36,204 bases of DNA from a virus: positions 1 to 36,204 of the IMG/VR virus record IMGVR_UViG_3300009182_000172; one strand, written 5' to 3'. A program made the translations under genes and the position numbers. The notes under the pieces are model-generated. The model made no database searches and had not been told where the DNA came from. It worked only from the letters and a program-made list of their open reading frames with translations. Below are positions 4,343-14,519 of this stretch, piece by piece (positions within the stretch are counted from its first letter, which is position 1; every line of letters begins with the position of its first letter).

Positions 4343-5587
4343 TTATTCGGCATCATCAACATCAGTTTCATCAACTGGTGTTGTTACCTTAGTTTTTTCA
4401 GAGAACTCTGTCATCACTAGATCAAAGATACCATTTTCGTTGCGATTCCACTCCTTGCGAAAATACTTATGTAACTCGCCATTTAAGTCAATGTAAGCAT
4501 AACGATTTCCATCTTTAGTAATGAGATTTTTCTTTTCTAACAGGTCAAATAATCCCGAATAAGGACTCATTCCAGTATCGTAAGGGATACGAACTTCAAT
4601 ATCTTCAAACGGTTTGGCATAACGTGTCTTCATAATCTTACAACCCGCACGGATACCATTTACTGTAGTAGTCTTATTGCCATCCTCGTCTTCTTTCAAT
4701 TTGAGTTTTTTCATTGCTACCACGATACTCGACGCATAGACAAATCCTTGACCACCACTTATGTTTGGATCTGGATTATATGGATCTTGGCTAGCATATG
4801 TATGATTGGTTGCCACTAATCCAACATTATAACTGCCAAACATGTTGACACAGTTGCGAACTAATGCTGTTAGTGCTTTAGGTTTGCGCCCCATGTCACC
4901 TTTCATGTCGCCGCTGTCAAACTGATTAACGTCAGTGGGTGTAAGTAACATACCCAAACTATCAATAACAAACAGCACCTTAGGACGTTCGCCATCGGGC
5001 AGTGTCTTATATTCTGACATAAAAGTGGATATGGTTTTTGCCACATCATCGATCATTGCCATACTTAGTTTCAGTAATTTACTTTCACTTGTATCCACCC
5101 CCAAGGCATGAAGCCAAGTCTCATCTAGCGCGTTTTCTGTGTCAATTAATACTACATAGATACCTTGTGCTTGTGCGTTTTTGACGATGTTGCCCGCGCA
5201 AATATAACTTTTGCCGCTGTTGTGACTGGAAATGCCATCTCCCCAATATCTATGATTTGGGTGAAGAATTTCAAAGTCATAACATTCTTCGTTTTTAGAT
5301 GATTTAATATCTAATACTGGTTCAGCTCCAGACTCAGTTATAATCAAATCTCCAACTGAAAGTTCTATTGCCAAAACCCACTTTCCATCTTCTAGTTGGA
5401 TCATATGATTTTCTGCGCAAGTAGTAGAATAGGATTTAGTTGTCACTGACACCATTGGCAACGATCCTTTGTCAAACCATTGTCCAATAGGTTGATAGCC
5501 ATCAGGAGTATCTAATTCAATATTGTACAATCCAGAATCATACAAAGTTTTAAGTTCGCCTACACTTATTTGTCTTTCTTCAATCAT
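4343..5587 (-). CDS. uvsX: C-intein fused to the C-terminal part of UvsX recombinase
   Basis: Residues 1-123 are a C-intein: block B with CAENH (57-61), block F YDFEILHPNHRYW, and the terminal GISSHN with the penultimate His and last Asn that catalyse C-terminal cleavage. Residue 124 is the +1 Ser. From there on (291 residues) it is the RecA/UvsX ATPase core, starting SGKSYICAG (second half of the Walker A), then DTENAL, Walker B-type VLFVIDSLGML, and an ISGGQGFVYASS loop. Joined to the N-terminal piece (5839-6081), the P-loop would read GESGSGKS and UvsX would be 356 residues (T4: 391). The ATG at 5587 overlaps the last codons of the endonuclease remnant by 8 bases. Without trans-splicing neither half would have a complete P-loop. 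Confidence 0.92.
   Translation of the reverse strand: MIEERQISVGELKTLYDSGLYNIELDTPDGYQPIGQWFDKGSLPMVSVTTKSYSTTCAENHMIQLEDGKWVLAIELSVGDLIITESGAEPVLDIKSSKNEECYDFEILHPNHRYWGDGISSHNSGKSYICAGNIVKNAQAQGIYVVLIDTENALDETWLHALGVDTSESKLLKLSMAMIDDVAKTISTFMSEYKTLPDGERPKVLFVIDSLGMLLTPTDVNQFDSGDMKGDMGRKPKALTALVRNCVNMFGSYNVGLVATNHTYASQDPYNPDPNISGGQGFVYASSIVVAMKKLKLKEDEDGNKTTTVNGIRAGCKIMKTRYAKPFEDIEVRIPYDTGMSPYSGLFDLLEKKNLITKDGNRYAYIDLNGELHKYFRKEWNRNENGIFDLVMTEFSEKTKVTTPVDETDVDDAE
5219..5587 (-). other. C-intein of the split UvsX intein
   Basis: 123 codons. It holds the block B CAENH, block F and terminal HN followed by Ser. It carries nearly the whole intein fold, leaving only 15 residues to the N-intein. 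It aligns with the terminase C-intein, also 123 residues: both share GYQPI, CAxxH and NHxxxxxDGIxSHN. Confidence 0.9.
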
Positions 5588-5849
5588 TTGATTTTCCCAT
5601 TATTTTTTCCACTAAATTGTTGATAACCATAGTTGGATTTCGTCTATAGTCACTTTCCCAAACTACTATTAATTGCTTTACATTTTTTGACTTTTTAATT
5701 TTATCTATCCTAAAATTATCTGTATTCCATTTTTCAGCCGACGAATATCCAAATATGGTATAATCAGCTTCGTACAACAGTGGGTTTCGATGGAAAAAAT
5801 CGCCGTAAAATTCTATAACTGTACCAGACTCTTTTAAGTTATTTTCTAG
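5580..5849 (-). pseudogene. Remnant Vsr-like homing endonuclease between the UvsX halves
   Basis: The minus-strand frame is open from 5849 to the stop at 5580 but has no ATG or GTG; a TTG at 5777 is the only common start and would cut off the core. Reading from the first codons it contains VIEFYGDFFHRNP, the counterpart of IIEFDGDYWHSP in the terminase-linked endonuclease, and VVWESDYRRNP, typical of Vsr/EDxHD-type phage homing enzymes. The N-terminal strand with RPDF seen in the terminase copy is missing. It is shifted +1 against the N-intein frame and overlaps it. I infer a decayed or truncated enzyme that may once have moved the intein. A sequencing indel or programmed +1 shift is an alternative. 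Confidence 0.6.
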
Positions 5850-6081
5850 TTAAACGTACTTTTACCTTCGCAGATTGAGGCAAACAGCCACTTTCTCCTG
5901 CAAAGACCGTTACTTTACCTAAAGGAATACCTCTAGTAAAAGATCCGCTTATCAAGTAATTTAACGCATAGTTACCAGTACTAATCCAGTCAGTGGGATC
6001 ATTAAATCCCACACTAAGTCCGTCGATTGATTTAGTAATATCACGACGGAATTTGCTTATGTCAAACGGCTTCATAGCCAT
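5839..6081 (-). CDS. uvsX: N-terminal part of UvsX recombinase fused to an N-intein
   Basis: Residues 1-65 are the N-terminal region of UvsX up to the first half of the Walker A (VTVFAGESG). Residue 66 is Cys, the nucleophile of an intein block A (CLPQSAKVKV), and the ORF ends 15 residues into the intein. This is an extremely short N-intein compared with the ~100 residues usual for cyanobacterial DnaE. An AAGGA ribosome-binding site precedes the ATG. The partner is the ORF at 4343-5587. The gene follows gp32 after a stable intergenic hairpin. UvsX polymerises on single-stranded DNA and catalyses strand exchange, so splicing is expected to be needed for phage recombination. Confidence 0.92.
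   Translation of the reverse strand: MAMKPFDISKFRRDITKSIDGLSVGFNDPTDWISTGNYALNYLISGSFTRGIPLGKVTVFAGESGCLPQSAKVKVRLTRK
5842..5886 (-). other. Ultra-short N-intein (15 residues) of the split UvsX intein
   Basis: From Cys66 of the N-terminal ORF to its stop. It contains only the block A strand (CLPQSAKVKV). The splice junction is GESG/Cys. Confidence 0.85.
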
Positions 6082-7295: not shown

Positions 7296-10200
7296 GGTTG
7301 AATGAAAATTCCTGCCAACGATCGCATTCTAGCCAATCCTAACTCTGCGAATTCACTTTCGGCCATAGGAGAAGTCAATTTTGGATATACTGGTTGTGTT
7401 GATCCTGATCCCACAAATTTTTCCGACGGTGTAGCGTACTGTGTTCCTGCGGTCGAAGGTGTTGATTGACTTGCTGAAGAAGTCTGTGCTTCTCTTGATT
7501 GAGCTCCTGTAAAACCTTGCTGAAATCCTTGTGCAAAAGCACTATCTTGTCCTTGATTATTTACTGGTGCCGCAGATGACTGTTGATTCCGTTTTTGACC
7601 AGTTAATTGAACTTGTCCAGGCTGTGTTTGATAATTTTCTTTATCATTTTTTGGATGCCAAAGCGTTGACATCTGCCCAATTTGACCTAATTTATCAGAA
7701 TCTAATCCATGGATTTCTGCCTGGCTCATAGTGCTTCTAAGTTCATTTCCTTGAGCACGCATTTTTTCAAGTTCAAGTCGTTGCAAGGCCTTTTGTTTTT
7801 GCAATGGATCTCGTAAACGAGCAATTTCAGCCTGTTGTTTTTCCCATTTTAATTTATTAGTATTTTGAGCAGCCCTAGCTTGCGGACTACGTTCTCTAGC
7901 TTCCTTTTCAGCTTCAGCTTGCCCCATTGTATTGACTAAATTAGTCCATTCGGTGTCGCCCATCCATGCAGCAATCGCAGGTTTTGCGGGTATAGGAGTA
8001 GCTTCGGCTAGCGCGTTTTGTCTAGAAAGTTTTACTTTTTCCTGTGTGCTGGCAATCCAATCAGTATGCTGATTGGGTGTGGTACTAGCACGATCTCGTT
8101 TTACATTTAGCTCATACTGTTGTAATTCTTTCTCAGCTGCCTTATATACTGTAGGATCATTGCTGCCTAATCGTTTAGCAATATCTCTGTACCATGAACG
8201 AACATCAGAAAACCCATGCTGCTTAGCCATCGTTGTATTACTATGTTGACTGAGATTAGACGTAGTGATAGGATTCGCTGTTTGGTAATTATATATCTTC
8301 TGTGAGTCAGCAACTTGACTATTGAACTTGCTTTTTGAATCAGCCATTTTGCTAGCAAAATCAGTGTTTTCGTTAACTTCACTGGCACGTATACCTGCCA
8401 ACGCTCGTATACGATCAATCATATCTTGATCATGTCCTACAACTGGTTCCATTCTTCCCGAATGACCATACTGTCCCTGTAAGGTTAAACTTTCGTTAGC
8501 TAATACATTGGCTGAATCTGTTTCGTCCCACACAGGATCACCTTTGTCATCTACTTTTTTAAGATTTGGGAAAGTTCTTTGAGCATGTGCCAATTTGTCA
8601 GCTGGGGTATTTTTTACACGATCACCGCCAATATTAACATATTCGTCATCATTTTCTAACCAATTACCGCCGCCAACTGTTTCGCTTATTTTGTCTTGTA
8701 TCTCGCTGCCCAGTGCTCCGCCAATAGCCCCACTACCAGGAATCTCCGGAGCTAATATCTCACCAGCGACTGTGCCTAATGCCTTACCCAATGCAGCTTC
8801 ATCTACTGTATAATCTTGTTCTAAATCTTTTTGGATAATGGGTAAAATTTTATCAAGATCACGTTTTACATCCATGCCATGAGAACGTGCGATGCCTTTG
8901 ATTTTTTCGCCGATCTGTTTGGCTACGAATTTTTCTGCCATGCTTTTTGGATTAACATATACAGTCATGATATCTATGTTACCTGCGGCAATGTCTTTTA
9001 ATAACATATCAACTTCTGTCATCGCTGCTTCTTTTAATTTTTCACTGGATCTGCGAGCACGATCACTTAGATTAGCCGCTTTTCCAGCTCCGCCTGTGGG
9101 CTTACTAACTTTCTTCCAATCACCTACGTCTTTCCAACTAACAACTTTACCTGTTTCATCTTTGGTTTCAGTGCGTTCTTCGGCTACATTTTTATCCCGT
9201 AAATTTTTTCTATTTAAAAATTTAGCGGAGGATACCGTAGATTGTATTTTTGCTGCTGGCACATCAGCTTCATGGCCATTCGCAAATTTTACACGATATT
9301 TAGGACCACTAACATTTTGGAACTTAGATGACGATCCCCACTGATTGATCAATGGACCTTTACTTATGATCTTACCTACGCCAAAACCCTGTACTGTAAC
9401 AGTATCTGAGTATTGGAATTCTTTGTATTCTTTAAGTTGTTCTGCGTCATGGTCAGGTACTCTTTCTAATCCACGTTTACGGCGATCAATCATTCTCTGA
9501 GCGATGTCACCATATTCGCCTGAAACTTCTGGTTCTAAATCTTTGATCTGTTGTCCGGCTGCTTTTTTGTATCTGTCTATAGTATTAGCATCGAGCTCGG
9601 TGAGATCAGTGGGAGCAGCGGGCAAATCCAAATTAAATTTTAGAGCTAACTCTGTTCTAAATTTATCATAAGACTGTGAGTTATCAAAAACAAAAGTATG
9701 TGTCAGGCCACGTGTGCTGTTGAGATTAGTCGGAAACTTTACAAAGTCACCACTATCATTAGAAAAAATCATTTGTGATCCAACACGTTTGACAAATGTT
9801 AAGTTAAGTAAATTTGAATCTAGCGATATTACTTTGTTTTGTATCAACAGCAAAGGAGTTACAATATATCTTTTATCTTGTTTTGGATCTACTGTAAATC
9901 TAGATAGGCCTTGAAAATACTCCACATTGTCGTCATTAGATTCTAAGTGTATACCATCAGCATAATATGATTCAAATATAGAAATTTTATCATTTATGCT
10001 TAAATCATTGCTTAAGTCTGTCCAGTTAACTGCTGATTCGTTAACTTTTTTTTTAATTTGATATCCATTAAAATTTTCCATAACATCAAGCGAAGACTCT
10101 GCCTTGGATCGTGTTTCATCGGGCTGCTCTACTTTTAATTTTCCGATAACTTGTGCTACATCATGGTCATTTTTTAATTCTTCTAATCGGGCAAGTATAA

Positions 10201-11377
10201 CAGTACGAGCATCAGCGTTGGCATCTTCGTCGGCCAATTCGTGTAGTTTATCAAATAACTCATCGTCGCCTAACAAATCATATAGTTGTTCAGTGGCATT
10301 GATAGCATCGGCGCCTACAGGAAAATCTTGACTTAATAGTTCTACTAATTTACTTTGTTTTTCTTTAGTATCCGGCAGCGCCCAAGTTCCCTCAGAGAGT
10401 AAATTCATCCAACTTTCAAAAATATTAGCTTCTTTCATGTCTGTATCCTGTTTTTTCAATTTTGCCAATAATGGCAGAGCTTGCTCGATGCGACTGTCAA
10501 TGTTAGTTTCTATAAACATATGTCGCAGATCTTCGATGATAACATCTTCGTCAGTGACAGCAGCAGGGTCCCATGACTCAAAATATCGGTTATATCCAGT
10601 GTGTGTTGCCAACGATTTAAGATTACGACGCAGGGTTTCAAAATATTGGCTAGCTTCTGTTACCAACTGTGCCGCGTCGCCTTCAAATATTTTATGCTGA
10701 CTAGCACGACGAAAACGACTCAGTAAACTCATCTCGTTGACAATAGTTGTGATATGCTGGCCTCTGGCATCATAAGGTTTACCGCCTTGGCGCACATGCT
10801 CTACCATAGCACGACCACCAGCCAAATTAGCAAATGCCAGTTTATGTCTTTCGCCTTCGGCAGTTTCCACAAATAAACTTTCAATGTAGCGGAACCGAGC
10901 ATCACCTTCGCCGATGGTTTTTTTGTGTTTAATCATCAATCTCGCAGCAGCGGGGGCACTGTTCCAACTGGCAGTTTTAGTACCACGCCATGATTCGAAG
11001 ATCCCTTCTCGTATCGCTGCTTGTCCTTGTAAACTATATTTTAATTTGGAAATATCCATCAAGTTAAAGAGGAACACGTTACGTTTGGCAAGTTGACGTA
11101 GCTGCAGCAAGAAATCATCAAACCACGATTGTTTATCCTCTGGTTCCATGCTTTTACCAAGGTTGTCTCCGAAATAAACATCTAATCGATTAGTGTCATT
11201 GGGTACCGTTGTATCAGCATAATGTAATAATATACTGGCTTGACCATAGTCACGGCCTGATTTACCTTTGTAATCAAAAGAAAGTACATCATCGTTACCA
11301 GCTTTTATAGTTTCTGGACTGAAGTTCTTTGTGACTAGCAGGTTATCAAGCTGAGCTTTAATGTTATTGTTGGACAT
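7292..11377 (-). CDS. Large head-associated protein of unknown function (1361 aa)
   Basis: A long hydrophilic protein of a type seen in aquatic T4-like phages; I cannot assign a function. Visible features: three FESW motifs in the first ~350 residues (GIFESW, RYFESW, NIFESW); an SH3-like stretch around residues 650-710 with KYRVKFANGHEADVP; a glycine-zipper-like segment around 855-890 (GKALGTVAGEILAPEIPGSG, then AIGGALGSE) that could insert in a membrane; a Q/S-rich low-complexity region after about 1100; and two RxRxLAGI motifs (RIRALAGI, RMRSLAGI), the second near the C-terminus. IFE and similar IxE sites match the cleavage rule of T4-type prohead protease. I infer an internal or ejected head protein lying between terminase and gp32. 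An ATAAATA box ends 4 bases before its ATG. Confidence 0.75.
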   Translation of the reverse strand: MSNNNIKAQLDNLLVTKNFSPETIKAGNDDVLSFDYKGKSGRDYGQASILLHYADTTVPNDTNRLDVYFGDNLGKSMEPEDKQSWFDDFLLQLRQLAKRNVFLFNLMDISKLKYSLQGQAAIREGIFESWRGTKTASWNSAPAAARLMIKHKKTIGEGDARFRYIESLFVETAEGERHKLAFANLAGGRAMVEHVRQGGKPYDARGQHITTIVNEMSLLSRFRRASQHKIFEGDAAQLVTEASQYFETLRRNLKSLATHTGYNRYFESWDPAAVTDEDVIIEDLRHMFIETNIDSRIEQALPLLAKLKKQDTDMKEANIFESWMNLLSEGTWALPDTKEKQSKLVELLSQDFPVGADAINATEQLYDLLGDDELFDKLHELADEDANADARTVILARLEELKNDHDVAQVIGKLKVEQPDETRSKAESSLDVMENFNGYQIKKKVNESAVNWTDLSNDLSINDKISIFESYYADGIHLESNDDNVEYFQGLSRFTVDPKQDKRYIVTPLLLIQNKVISLDSNLLNLTFVKRVGSQMIFSNDSGDFVKFPTNLNSTRGLTHTFVFDNSQSYDKFRTELALKFNLDLPAAPTDLTELDANTIDRYKKAAGQQIKDLEPEVSGEYGDIAQRMIDRRKRGLERVPDHDAEQLKEYKEFQYSDTVTVQGFGVGKIISKGPLINQWGSSSKFQNVSGPKYRVKFANGHEADVPAAKIQSTVSSAKFLNRKNLRDKNVAEERTETKDETGKVVSWKDVGDWKKVSKPTGGAGKAANLSDRARRSSEKLKEAAMTEVDMLLKDIAAGNIDIMTVYVNPKSMAEKFVAKQIGEKIKGIARSHGMDVKRDLDKILPIIQKDLEQDYTVDEAALGKALGTVAGEILAPEIPGSGAIGGALGSEIQDKISETVGGGNWLENDDEYVNIGGDRVKNTPADKLAHAQRTFPNLKKVDDKGDPVWDETDSANVLANESLTLQGQYGHSGRMEPVVGHDQDMIDRIRALAGIRASEVNENTDFASKMADSKSKFNSQVADSQKIYNYQTANPITTSNLSQHSNTTMAKQHGFSDVRSWYRDIAKRLGSNDPTVYKAAEKELQQYELNVKRDRASTTPNQHTDWIASTQEKVKLSRQNALAEATPIPAKPAIAAWMGDTEWTNLVNTMGQAEAEKEARERSPQARAAQNTNKLKWEKQQAEIARLRDPLQKQKALQRLELEKMRAQGNELRSTMSQAEIHGLDSDKLGQIGQMSTLWHPKNDKENYQTQPGQVQLTGQKRNQQSSAAPVNNQGQDSAFAQGFQQGFTGAQSREAQTSSASQSTPSTAGTQYATPSEKFVGSGSTQPVYPKLTSPMAESEFAELGLARMRSLAGIFIQP

Positions 11378-11381
11378 AGTG

Positions 11382-11388
11382 TATTTAT
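11382..11388 (-). promoter_or_regulatory. Late-type promoter motif ATAAATA, 4 nt before an ATG
   Basis: ATAAATA then CACT then ATG (11377). The start of transcription would be at or next to the start codon, and no Shine-Dalgarno is present. Confidence 0.5.
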
Positions 11389-11390
11389 GA

Positions 11391-13067
11391 CTAGTACATC
11401 GAAGCTATAAATGGCAGAGGTGGCACGATGTGTGAGCCATGATCTCGCATCTGTGTATCCATTTCAGGATGATAGCTTTGTAGTAGTATCATCATTCTAG
11501 TTACTAGTATAGTGGCCATGACTAAATCATCGGTTTCGCCGGGTTTGGCAGCATAACTTACCCCGTGCGCCACAAACGCCTTTAATTCTGAGATCAATGG
11601 TTTACTGCGTATTTTCATCTTGCCTGATTCTATTAATGTCTTTAATTTAGCGCAGGCAGTTAGTTTATTTTTTGGGCTAGTATTAAATCCTTTGCGATAC
11701 CTGCCGGCTCCTCTGTTAGGATCTGACAAGAAATATCCTCGAATATTTTCCTCGCCATACTGATCTATGGAAATCAGTGCCGCTTCACCAATGGTGTTAT
11801 TTTCTACACTATAATAAACACTTTGTTCGTCGCCTACTATATTGTAGATATACTGTACTACATCGGCTAATATTCTAATTTGTTCGGGGATAGTCGTACG
11901 ATTGTGTTTCCACTCACCCACTTGCTCAGTTGAGTTGGCTTCAAATACCTGTATAGCAGCCGGATCGCCACCAGTGCCCAAACTGGGATCTAGGCCCACA
12001 CAATAAATTTTACCCAATTCTGGAGTTTTATACCATCGTATCTGCGCTGTTTTATGCGTGGGCTCAACCCCTTCTAGATCTATAAGTTTAGCCGGAGCAA
12101 TTAATGTTTCATCATTGATAATGAATTCACAACCTATTTCTCGCCTAAAGCGATCTTCTCCTAGTTGCGCTTTAGTAGCTTCTGCCCATGCATCGTCTCT
12201 GTCGGGATGTTCTTGCCAATAACTTCTAAATGGTCTGAACCCGTTTAACCCCACTTCTTGGGGATTACCATGGCTATCCTCCATTTTATTAGCGGCTTTC
12301 CACAATAACGCAAACTGATCTTCGTCACTATTTGGGGTACTAGTGATGATTGCTTTACCGCCAGTTGACAGCGTTGGTGAAATTGAAGTCCAGAATTCAG
12401 AGGCAATAGTGGGACGCACAAATGCGAACTCATCCAGGTAAAGTAACGAAAGACTCATACCACGACCAGTGTTTTCAGTTGTAGTAGCAGATACTATACG
12501 CGATCCGTTTTCAAATTCAATCGAACCTTTATTATAGTTTGTGGCACCTGCTCTGATATGATCAGGGCAAAGCTCATAAGCGTATCGGACACGGTTCATA
12601 ATTTCTTGTGAACCGTCATACTTGTGAGCAGATACGAGAATGGTGCTGTCAGGCACAAACATAGCATACCACAACAAATAGCCTGCTGCGCTTGTTGAAT
12701 TATGACTTAATATACCATCCGAGTAAAATCGATGATGGTTACTTGCTACTGCCAAATCATACATTGATTCATACACACCAGTGGCCGTGACAGACAGAAC
12801 TTGGCTTGGACCTTGAATAGTCTGTACTAACTCAGTTGATGTTAAATCTTTGACAAAAACCTCATTAAATTTGTCATCAAATACAATATGTGTATCCGCA
12901 CAACTTAGACTTAACCCATTTGATAATTTTAACGTATAAATTTCATATTCAACTGTCTGTTTGACTTCTTCAATAGGTTGGTACCCAGTGTCAGTCAGTA
13001 CACTCCACTCACTGACTGGTACTATATCAGTAAATTTTCGTGTTATTGAGTTAGAAAGTTGATGCAT
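11391..13067 (-). CDS. 17: C-intein fused to the C-terminal part of the large terminase (gp17)
   Basis: Residues 1-123 are a C-intein: block B CADTHIV, block F MYDLAVASNHHRFY and the terminal DGILSHN. The +1 residue is Ser124. After it comes the ATPase part of TerL: STSAAGYLLWYAMF completes the P-loop, LLYLDE (208-213) is Walker B with the catalytic Glu, and SIT-like STPNSDED follows as the coupling motif. The nuclease domain shows GLDPS (Asp361), YYSVENN and a late Asp pair in ETDDLVMA (about 512-517). Joined to 13352-13759 the mature terminase is 520 residues and the P-loop reads RQSGKS. TerL pumps DNA into the prohead and cuts the concatemer. The ATG at 13067 overlaps the endonuclease gene by 25 bases. 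Confidence 0.93.
   Translation of the reverse strand: MHQLSNSITRKFTDIVPVSEWSVLTDTGYQPIEEVKQTVEYEIYTLKLSNGLSLSCADTHIVFDDKFNEVFVKDLTSTELVQTIQGPSQVLSVTATGVYESMYDLAVASNHHRFYSDGILSHNSTSAAGYLLWYAMFVPDSTILVSAHKYDGSQEIMNRVRYAYELCPDHIRAGATNYNKGSIEFENGSRIVSATTTENTGRGMSLSLLYLDEFAFVRPTIASEFWTSISPTLSTGGKAIITSTPNSDEDQFALLWKAANKMEDSHGNPQEVGLNGFRPFRSYWQEHPDRDDAWAEATKAQLGEDRFRREIGCEFIINDETLIAPAKLIDLEGVEPTHKTAQIRWYKTPELGKIYCVGLDPSLGTGGDPAAIQVFEANSTEQVGEWKHNRTTIPEQIRILADVVQYIYNIVGDEQSVYYSVENNTIGEAALISIDQYGEENIRGYFLSDPNRGAGRYRKGFNTSPKNKLTACAKLKTLIESGKMKIRSKPLISELKAFVAHGVSYAAKPGETDDLVMATILVTRMMILLQSYHPEMDTQMRDHGSHIVPPLPFIASMY
12699..13067 (-). other. C-intein of the split terminase intein
   Basis: 123 codons ending in SHN before Ser. 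It is related to the UvsX C-intein over its length. Atypically split TerL inteins with a long C-part have been described from aquatic metagenomes (AceL-TerL, from memory). Confidence 0.9.
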
Positions 13068-13309
13068 TCTTGTAAAACCTTGTCTTTGTTTTGTTTATAT
13101 TCATATTCAAAAACGTGAAATATTTTATACCCAGCATTTGCTATTCTATGATCGCGCATTTTTTCACGCTCTGGATTTGCTCGCACCGGCGAATGCCAAT
13201 AATCTCCATCAAATTCAATTATTTTTTTCCTAGTTAAACATATAAAATCAGGGCGTACATATGTATTATCAAGCTCCAAGACATACTCTTTGTTTTTGTA
13301 TGTACTCAT
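13043..13309 (-). CDS. Vsr-like homing endonuclease between the terminase halves
   Basis: An 88-residue protein with RPDF at 19-22 and IEFDGDYWHSP starting at 31, then HRIANAGYKIFHVFEYEYKQ. This is the very-short-patch-repair (Vsr)/EDxHD fold of small phage homing endonucleases, with an acidic residue and His of the active site in place. It is expected to cut an intein-less terminase gene so that repair copies the intein and itself. GAGAAG stands before the ATG. The same frame is open for 11 more codons upstream, so a non-ATG start further up is possible. Free-standing endonuclease genes between split-intein halves are a known arrangement ('fractured genes'). Confidence 0.82.
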   Translation of the reverse strand: MSTYKNKEYVLELDNTYVRPDFICLTRKKIIEFDGDYWHSPVRANPEREKMRDHRIANAGYKIFHVFEYEYKQNKDKVLQECINFLTQ

Positions 13310-13351
13310 ATCTTCTCGAATGTGTGTGGCGTAAAAGTCATTTTACAGTGT

Positions 13352-13759
13352 TTACAATTTTTTGACTTCATATTTCGATATGTCAGGGATTTCTGTTCCG
13401 TCTCGTTGAGCCTGCATAAATTTGTGGTAGATGCCAATCGGTATGTCATATTGTTTTCCAGTTTTGTTGTTCATAATATTTACATTGGAATCTTCTTGTA
13501 AACATTTTCCCGACTGTCTCGGCATCATGGCTATAGCGTATCGGTAGTTGTGGTACGTTTCAATCAATCTTTTTTGATAATCAAAAGGTTGATATTGCAT
13601 CTTGCCCTGAACTGGATGCTGTATGAAAAAGAAATTGCCCATAAAGTAGTGAGGCCCTGACTCAGGATCTGTACATAGAGCAAATTCAGTTAGCTGTTGA
13701 GCCGTCCAGTTTTGTTTTTTGTAAGGGGCTTTGGCTAGGCTAGATGCGTCAAATGACAT
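13352..13759 (-). CDS. 17: N-terminal part of the large terminase (gp17) fused to an N-intein
   Basis: Residues 1-85 are the start of TerL, with FDYQKRLIETYHNYRYAIAM (adenine-binding Q motif region) and the P-loop opening PRQSGK. Cys86 opens the N-intein (CLQEDSNVNI, block A), which runs 50 residues to the stop. The partner is 11391-13067. No Shine-Dalgarno is visible; a GTAAATA box ends 4 bases before the ATG. Without splicing this fragment would have only half of a Walker A. Confidence 0.92.
   Translation of the reverse strand: MSFDASSLAKAPYKKQNWTAQQLTEFALCTDPESGPHYFMGNFFFIQHPVQGKMQYQPFDYQKRLIETYHNYRYAIAMMPRQSGKCLQEDSNVNIMNNKTGKQYDIPIGIYHKFMQAQRDGTEIPDISKYEVKKL
13355..13504 (-). other. N-intein (50 residues) of the split terminase intein
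   Basis: It starts at Cys86 of the N-terminal terminase ORF. Block A is CLQEDSNVNI. The tail after ~25 residues (KFMQAQRDGTEI and on) has no obvious intein motif and may be extra. Confidence 0.85.
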
Positions 13760-13763
13760 GTGT

Positions 13764-13770
13764 TATTTAC
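13764..13770 (-). promoter_or_regulatory. Late-type promoter motif GTAAATA, 4 nt before the terminase ATG
   Basis: GTAAATA, ACAC, then ATG at 13759. Same geometry as the box at 11382-11388. Confidence 0.4.
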
Positions 13771-13780
13771 AATTAGTTGA

Positions 13781-14497
13781 TTACTGGCCTAACCCAAATT
13801 TCATGCCTGTAGCTTTTTCAATTTCAGTCATACTTGTTTGATATTGTAACCAATTAGTGGCGGGCACAATTGGAGCATTTGGCATTAAATATGCTTGAAC
13901 TTTTTTGCTACGCTTCTCAATAATAATTTTATATAATCGTGTCGGAATACCCAAACCATTGCCAGTAAATGCGTGACCTTGATCGAATATACCACCCGAG
14001 ATAACGTAAAAATCTGTTCCTTGTGCCATAGCCCATTGCCGTTCGGCAGTTTCGAGTAAACGCCATCCACCTCTGTTATTATTAGCATTTTGTGGAACCA
14101 TATTACTTAAATTAAAACTCTCACTCATGATGTCATCATTTTGTGTATTGTTGCCAGCGGGCGCCATATGACCGCGATCATGTGTTTTACCTACAGTAGC
14201 ATAGTCAGCTAGACTGGCACTACATTGAGGCGAGACACTGGCGTCTGGATGGAAGTTATCTCGGCGTTTTGCTGGACCAGTCATAGCCGCTACTGTTAAA
14301 TGTTCAAATACTGCCACCGGAGCTTTAACATCACAACGATGAATCACTGCGTAATTGAGGTGACAAATTTCTTGATCACCGGGGTGTGATTGATACTGTG
14401 GCGTGCCGTTTACAGTAAACTGTGGACATTCTTGATCAATTTGTGCAAAAGTTGATAAACTTGTTAATGCTGTTATTATTATAATAAATTGTTTCAT
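13781..14497 (-). CDS. Secreted DNA/RNA non-specific endonuclease (NucA family)
   Basis: A 238-residue beta-beta-alpha metal nuclease. Residues 1-18 form a typical signal peptide (MKQFIIIITALTSLSTFA) with a cleavage site near AQ. The catalytic motif DRGHMAPAGN is at 107-116 with His110 as the general base, and SNMVPQNANNNRGGW (131-145) supplies the Mg-binding Asn. These enzymes degrade any nucleic acid. A signal peptide on a phage nuclease sends it to the periplasm or outside. Possible uses are clearing host DNA after lysis, nucleotide recovery or destroying incoming competitor DNA; these are guesses. AGGAG ribosome-binding site; ATAAATA box 22 bases further up, so it is probably a late gene. 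It could have been acquired from a bacterium. Confidence 0.9.
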   Translation of the reverse strand: MKQFIIIITALTSLSTFAQIDQECPQFTVNGTPQYQSHPGDQEICHLNYAVIHRCDVKAPVAVFEHLTVAAMTGPAKRRDNFHPDASVSPQCSASLADYATVGKTHDRGHMAPAGNNTQNDDIMSESFNLSNMVPQNANNNRGGWRLLETAERQWAMAQGTDFYVISGGIFDQGHAFTGNGLGIPTRLYKIIIEKRSKKVQAYLMPNAPIVPATNWLQYQTSMTEIEKATGMKFGLGQ

Positions 14498-14519
14498 TAT
14501 GAATCTCCTAAATTTTGGT

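What the first reader, a model, noticed from the sequence alone, without database searches (positions are those of the whole stretch)
4343..6081. UvsX recombinase encoded in two pieces joined by an atypically split intein
The N-terminal ORF stops 15 residues after a Cys that interrupts the Walker A (GESG/Cys). A separate ORF starts with a 123-residue C-intein ending SSHN, then SGKS. All splicing residues are in place: Cys1, block B His, penultimate His, terminal Asn, +1 Ser. Naturally split inteins with so short an N-part are rare (known examples of about 16-25 residues, from memory). A split recombinase would need trans-splicing before any strand exchange, which could time recombination.
Basis: partly seen in the sequence, partly recalled or inferred. 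Interest (0 to 1): 0.93.

Follow-up and report, generated by a model that had tools for sequence, protein, structure and literature searches.

The report
Phage recombinase split by VidaL-type intein
A bacterial virus makes its DNA-recombination protein as two separate pieces that an intein should join after translation; it is a close relative of the already studied VidaL split intein, and neighbouring sequences show a decayed mobile nuclease gene between the pieces and the whole element moving between related viruses.

Summary
UvsX is encoded as a 65-aa N-extein plus 15-aa IntN (5839-6081) and a 123-aa IntC plus 291-aa C-extein (4343-5587), split inside Walker A (GESG|SGKS). It is not new in kind. 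The fused intein matches the solved, fast trans-splicing VidaL intein over its full length (PDB 6VGV/6VGW, E 1.5e-51, 82 of 138 aligned positions identical). The same insertion in uvsX occurs in 30+ IMG/VR loci and in eleven Pseudomonas jumbo-phage records (PA5oct, Paride, MIJ3...). Between window and relative, the intein-plus-nuclease cassette differs at 20% of synonymous codons and the UvsX exteins at 45% (p=2e-9), as expected if the cassette moved after the hosts diverged. Many close relatives lack the intein and others carry it unsplit, so a decayed selfish element explains it better than a timing device. The window also has a second split gene, the terminase, with its own truncated endonuclease. 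Relatives carry up to six inteins, including a terminase in four pieces.

The parts
5887..6081 (-). UvsX N-extein (65 aa), ends at Walker A GESG
   Evidence: ORF; PHROG 97 UvsX E=5e-13
5842..5886 (-). IntN, 15 aa CLPQSAKVKVRLTRK, followed by TAA stop at 5839-5841
   Evidence: sequence; aligned to VidaL IntN; conserved 15-17 aa in relatives
5580..5834 (-). 3' remnant (84 codons plus stop) of a Vsr-fold homing endonuclease gene; no ATG/GTG/TTG at its 5' end; 943 bp deleted relative to L086
   Evidence: family fold
5219..5587 (-). IntC, 123 aa, ends SSHN; start codon overlaps endonuclease stop by 8 nt
   Evidence: VidaL alignment
4346..5218 (-). UvsX C-extein (291 aa), begins SGKS
   Evidence: Pfam RecA 2.4e-9; PHROG 97 2.8e-51
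13355..13759 (-). Second split gene: TerL N-extein (85 aa, ends PRQSGK) plus 50-aa IntN (13355-13504)
13043..13342 (-). Vsr-like endonuclease frame between TerL halves; equals only residues 305-403 of the 403-aa endonuclease at the same site in contig G002
12699..13067 (-). TerL IntC, 123 aa, ends SHN
   Evidence: Intein_splicing, below cut-off; TIGR01443, above cut-off
11394..12698 (-). TerL C-extein (435 aa), begins STSAAGY

Best explanation
The uvsX gene of this phage carries a class 1, S1-split intein of the VidaL family at the Walker A loop. The two polypeptides associate, the 15-residue IntN completes the Hint fold of IntC, and trans-splicing yields a 356-aa UvsX (inferred from the characterised homologue, not shown here). 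The split came with a Vsr-fold homing endonuclease gene lying between the halves, whose product would cut intein-free uvsX alleles so that repair copies the whole IntN-endonuclease-IntC cassette (inferred). In this virus the endonuclease has since been destroyed by a 943-bp deletion, leaving a 3' remnant that still overlaps the UvsX-C start. The split intein stays because precise loss or in-frame re-fusion is rare and imprecise loss destroys UvsX (inferred). It is a decayed mobile element, not a regulatory switch.
For: VidaL match E=1.5e-51 over residues 2-138 of the fused intein, with VidaL shown to trans-splice (PMC13014065). L003 differs from VidaL at 4 of 138 positions, one of them the final Asn, which is Ala in the crystallised chain. 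Same site and split in PA5oct and Paride with a 477-aa ORF between, and one UvsX place per listed genome. Full endonuclease in L086, L088, L090, L092, L093, L096, L099, L112, L114, L115; broken in the window, L087, L103, L105; absent but still split in L003, L101, L102, L110; unsplit intein in 12 loci. Endonuclease C-domain matches Vsr (Z 11.5) and the homing endonuclease I-Bth0305I (Z 9.4). Purifying selection on IntC (dN/dS 0.06, window vs L086). Cassette synonymous difference 40/203 vs exteins 148/330, p=1.9e-9, also with A/T-ending codons only (p=2e-6); strongest such contrast of 325 pairs. Split and unsplit forms interleave on the intein tree, at least 3 changes forced by starred branches.
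Against: No splicing was observed. IntN is too short (15 codons) for its own selection test. The cassette contrast is clear in one pair only; most other pairs are too diverged to tell. The endonuclease's sequence-level match to Vsr is weak (E about 0.2), and neither its target site nor any homing was shown. The deletion in the window cannot be checked against reads.
Confidence: 0.9

Rival explanations
1. The split is a regulatory device: trans-splicing delays active UvsX and so times recombination-dependent replication.
For: The split interrupts Walker A, so unspliced halves should be inactive (sequence). Purifying selection on the intein fits any need for splicing.
Against: VidaL t1/2 about 1 min. 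78 of the 80 best UvsX loci have no intein. Unsplit and split forms interleave in the tree. Endonuclease relics and cassette transfer point to a selfish origin.
Confidence: 0.06
2. Assembly or sequencing error: in the real genome the intein is one continuous ORF.
For: Continuous UvsX inteins exist in relatives (L004, L085, L089). The window is a single metagenomic contig.
Against: Stop after 15-17 IntN residues and a separate IntC start are conserved in at least 15 distinct loci, including finished genomes of cultured phages. The gap sequence is homologous to the last 84 codons of the relatives' endonuclease.
Confidence: 0.02
3. The halves no longer splice and UvsX is lost or works as non-covalent fragments, as in split NrdA of phage Aeh1.
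For: Fragment complementation without splicing is known for other endonuclease-split phage genes (PMC2988022).
Against: All splicing residues kept and IntC under strong purifying selection. The break lies inside the P-loop with the intein still attached, so non-covalent assembly would leave a 138-residue insert at the ATP site.
Confidence: 0.03

Closest known systems
VidaL atypically split intein (PDB 6VGV, 6VGW)
   Same: Full-length homologue; same S1 split after beta-2; IntN 15 vs 16 aa. Near-identical L003 sits at the same GESG|SGKS site of UvsX.
   Different: About 59% identical; a relic endonuclease lies between the halves here, only 58 bp in L003.
UvsX of Pseudomonas jumbo phages PA5oct / Paride / MIJ3 (Wroclawvirus)
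   Same: Same insertion site, split, 17-aa IntN and intervening endonuclease-family ORF.
   Different: Intervening gene intact at 477 aa. The MIJ3 paper reports only the split PolB intein.
Fractured genes with split inteins and Vsr-like homing endonucleases (Dassa et al. 2009)
   Same: Split-intein halves flanking a free-standing Vsr-fold endonuclease gene; nearest homing-endonuclease fold is I-Bth0305I.
   Different: S1 rather than canonical split; endonuclease degenerate here. The paper itself was not held, so its details rest on citing papers and memory.
AceL-TerL / GOS-TerL atypically split inteins
   Same: Short IntN, phage ATPase host.
   Different: S2 split and IntN of 25-37 aa. The window's TerL intein has Ser+1 and is only weakly similar to the Cat consensus (E=0.02).
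PolB16 OarG intein
   Same: 15-aa IntN, the shortest characterised (PMC10189870).
   Different: Cysteine-less, Ser1, in PolB.

Membership tests
VidaL-type atypically split intein in UvsX | Sequence homology over IntN and IntC | tested here: met
   phmmer E=1.5e-51, query 2-138
VidaL-type atypically split intein in UvsX | S1 split with IntN of about 15-17 aa | tested here: met
   IntN 15 aa
VidaL-type atypically split intein in UvsX | Insertion at UvsX Walker A GESG|SGKS | tested here: met
   L003 is 97% identical to VidaL and lies in UvsX
VidaL-type atypically split intein in UvsX | Trans-splicing activity | not testable with these tools
   homologue active; window pair untested
Class 1 intein | Cys1, block-B His, penultimate His, Asn, Cys/Ser/Thr+1 | tested here: met
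   sequence
Fractured gene (split intein plus free-standing endonuclease gene) | Endonuclease gene between the intein halves | tested here: met
   intact in relatives; truncated remnant in the window
Fractured gene (split intein plus free-standing endonuclease gene) | Homing of the cassette | tested here: inconclusive
   lower synonymous divergence of the cassette than of the exteins, but no homing assay
Vsr-fold (EDxHD-like) homing endonuclease | Vsr/PD-(D/E)XK-like catalytic fold | tested here: met
   L086 model vs 1CW0 Z 11.5 (115 aligned, 2.7 A), vs 3R3P Z 9.4
Vsr-fold (EDxHD-like) homing endonuclease | Complete reading frame in the window | tested here: not met
   only residues 295-378 of 378 remain; VDF motif (290-292) deleted

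The most novel reading that the evidence does not exclude
In this phage clade several key P-loop ATPases (UvsX, UvsW, gp41-like helicase, terminase in up to four pieces) are built only after several separate trans-splicing reactions, and the endonuclease-free split inteins have been kept as a post-translational checkpoint that orders replication, recombination and packaging.
Probability: 0.06. Interest if true: 0.85.

Novelty: new member of a known kind. Interest (0 to 1): 0.42.

Why it matters
The locus is a new natural VidaL homologue with a 15-aa IntN, as short as the shortest characterised, so it is a candidate tool for protein semisynthesis. With its relatives it lays out the life cycle of a split intein: unsplit, split with an endonuclease gene, split with a broken one, split with none. 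It gives sequence evidence that the cassette moves as a unit. Cultured PAO1 phages with the same split UvsX make trans-splicing in a natural infection directly testable.

Tried and rejected
Pfam and NCBIfam do not recognise the UvsX-linked endonuclease, apart from sub-threshold hits; its identity came from the AlphaFold model and VIA-align, with Foldseek alone not significant (E 0.56). Profile search of PDB sequences gave Vsr only at E about 0.2. Papers: no held paper joins UvsX with split intein, and Dassa 2009 and the GOS-TerL paper are not held. L089 (unsplit) may be a re-fusion: it nests with split L091 (100/96) and keeps the internal start-codon region ATGAATATG, but polarity was not proven. 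The extein tree has long branches and was not used for transfer claims. The cassette-versus-extein contrast was not general across pairs, so it is claimed only for window/L086. An alignment of UvsX-C orthologues failed on frame coordinates and was not needed.

Full report
What is there. On the minus strand the phage fragment has UvsX-N (5839-6081), a 251-bp gap and UvsX-C (4343-5587). UvsX-N ends ...VFAGESG|CLPQSAKVKVRLTRK*, and UvsX-C is a 123-residue IntC ending ISSHN followed by SGKSYICAGN. The exteins add up to 356 aa. PHROG 97 (UvsX-like recombinase) hits both halves and Pfam RecA the C-half. The record is a 36,204-bp viral contig.

What it is. Placed head to tail, the two intein fragments match the PDB entries of the VidaL split intein (6VGV, 6VGW) over residues 2-138 at E=1.5e-51; 82 of 138 aligned positions are identical. 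L003, whose intein differs from the crystallised VidaL chain at 4 of 138 positions (one is the final Asn, Ala in that chain), sits at the same UvsX Walker A site, so VidaL and this intein are orthologous at the same site. VidaL has a 16-aa IntN, an S1 split, and t1/2 of about 1 min at 37 C (PMC13014065). The 15-aa IntN here equals the shortest characterised (PolB16 OarG, PMC10189870).

Distribution. A scan with the IntC found 31 loci in IMG/VR. Of all intein loci examined about two thirds are split and 12 carry an unsplit mini-intein (L095 is unsplit by inspection). Complete genomes of Pseudomonas phages PA5oct, Paride, MIJ3 and others match over the IntC and C-extein; the split was read directly in PA5oct and Paride, and Salicola phage SCTP-2 carries the intein unsplit. 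The tblastn search lists one UvsX place per Wroclawvirus genome. Of the 80 best UvsX loci, 78 have no intein.

The gap. In most split relatives the gap of about 1.1-1.5 kb holds one ORF of 350-480 aa of a single family. An AlphaFold model of the L086 protein (mean pLDDT 77.5) has a C-terminal domain that aligns with Vsr endonuclease (1CW0, Z 11.5, 115 residues, 2.7 A) and with the homing endonuclease I-Bth0305I (3R3P, Z 9.4). In the window only 84 codons of this gene are left (75 of 84 residues identical to L086 residues 295-378). A 943-bp deletion took the start, the helical N-terminal part and the conserved VDF motif. L087, otherwise identical to L086 over the compared 1,163 bp, has a 17-bp deletion that breaks the same gene. 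L103 and L105 keep short remnants, and L003, L101, L102 and L110 have no endonuclease at all. In the window the endonuclease stop and the UvsX-C start still overlap by 8 nt (sequence).

Movement. Between the window and L086, codons for unchanged residues differ at 148 of 330 positions in the exteins but 40 of 203 in IntN + endonuclease tail + IntC (p=1.9e-9; 4-fold sites 73/126 vs 20/72, p=6e-5; codons ending A/T only, p=2e-6). NG86 dS is 1.9-2.7 in exteins and 0.38-0.39 in intein and endonuclease tail. This is the strongest such contrast among 325 pairs. The simplest reading is that the cassette, both intein halves and nuclease together, was exchanged more recently than the hosts diverged. 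IntC dN/dS is 0.06, so the intein is under constraint. On the intein tree, split and unsplit forms interleave and at least three changes are forced by well supported branches.

Mechanism and rivals. Shown: anatomy, homology to an active split intein, endonuclease family and decay, cassette-limited low divergence. Inferred: trans-splicing of this pair, homing by the intact relatives, retention after endonuclease loss because precise deletion is rare. A timing role is disfavoured by fast splicing of the homologue and by sporadic occurrence. Assembly error is excluded by conservation of the split in independent and finished genomes.

Wider context. The same window has a second split gene: TerL is cut after PRQSGK with a 50-aa IntN, a truncated Vsr-like endonuclease (99 codons, matching residues 305-403 of a 403-aa relative) and a 123-aa IntC. 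Contigs of relatives hold more. G002 (contig of L088) encodes TerL as four ORFs with three split inteins, whose joined exteins align colinearly with the window's TerL without gaps at the joints, plus split UvsX and a UvsW with one split and one continuous intein; G001 (contig of L086) has split gp41-like helicase, UvsW, UvsX and TerL. The window's UvsW is intact, and it lacks G001's TerL intein while G001 lacks the window's, although these TerLs are identical at 455 of 520 positions, another sign of frequent gain and loss.

Verdict. Real, correctly described, new member of a known kind, with useful evolutionary detail.

Noticed in passing
window 11391-13759 (-): TerL is also a split-intein gene: N-half with 50-aa IntN, truncated Vsr-like endonuclease, IntC with Ser+1. 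Both endonuclease genes in the window are 5'-truncated.
   Followed up: partly
L143 (IMGVR_UViG_3300020198_000018, contig bases 17500-24000): Terminase encoded as four ORFs with three atypically split inteins (PRQSGK|TTC, SLLY|CDEF, RREFN|CEF) and two intervening endonuclease-type genes; joined exteins are colinear with an ordinary TerL.
   Followed up: partly
L149 (same contig, bases 7500-14500): UvsW helicase with one split intein at GAGK|T and one continuous intein at DE|CH, beside split UvsX: with the three in TerL, six inteins in about 15 kb.
   Followed up: no
L147, L148, L144 (IMGVR_UViG_3300028392_000113): One contig with split gp41-like helicase, UvsW, UvsX and TerL; nuclease-like genes between the halves, one of them HNH-like by eye.
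   Followed up: no
L145 (IMGVR_UViG_3300012031_000015, contig of the VidaL-like L003): TerL Walker A site carries an unrelated large continuous intein that appears to begin with Ala (TGK|ALALDTPIPT...HN|TTC) where the window has a split intein; a further split intein lies at the RREYG|CEF site.
   Followed up: no
NC_071039.1 134722-137728 (L083): PA5oct split UvsX is annotated as a hypothetical protein plus 'UvsX-like recombinase' with an MS note; the MIJ3 authors described only the PolB split intein.
   Followed up: partly
L089 2000-2432: Unsplit UvsX intein that keeps the IntC start-codon region of its split sister L091 inside the linker (KMNMYLEKEV), suggesting re-fusion of a split intein.
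   Followed up: partly
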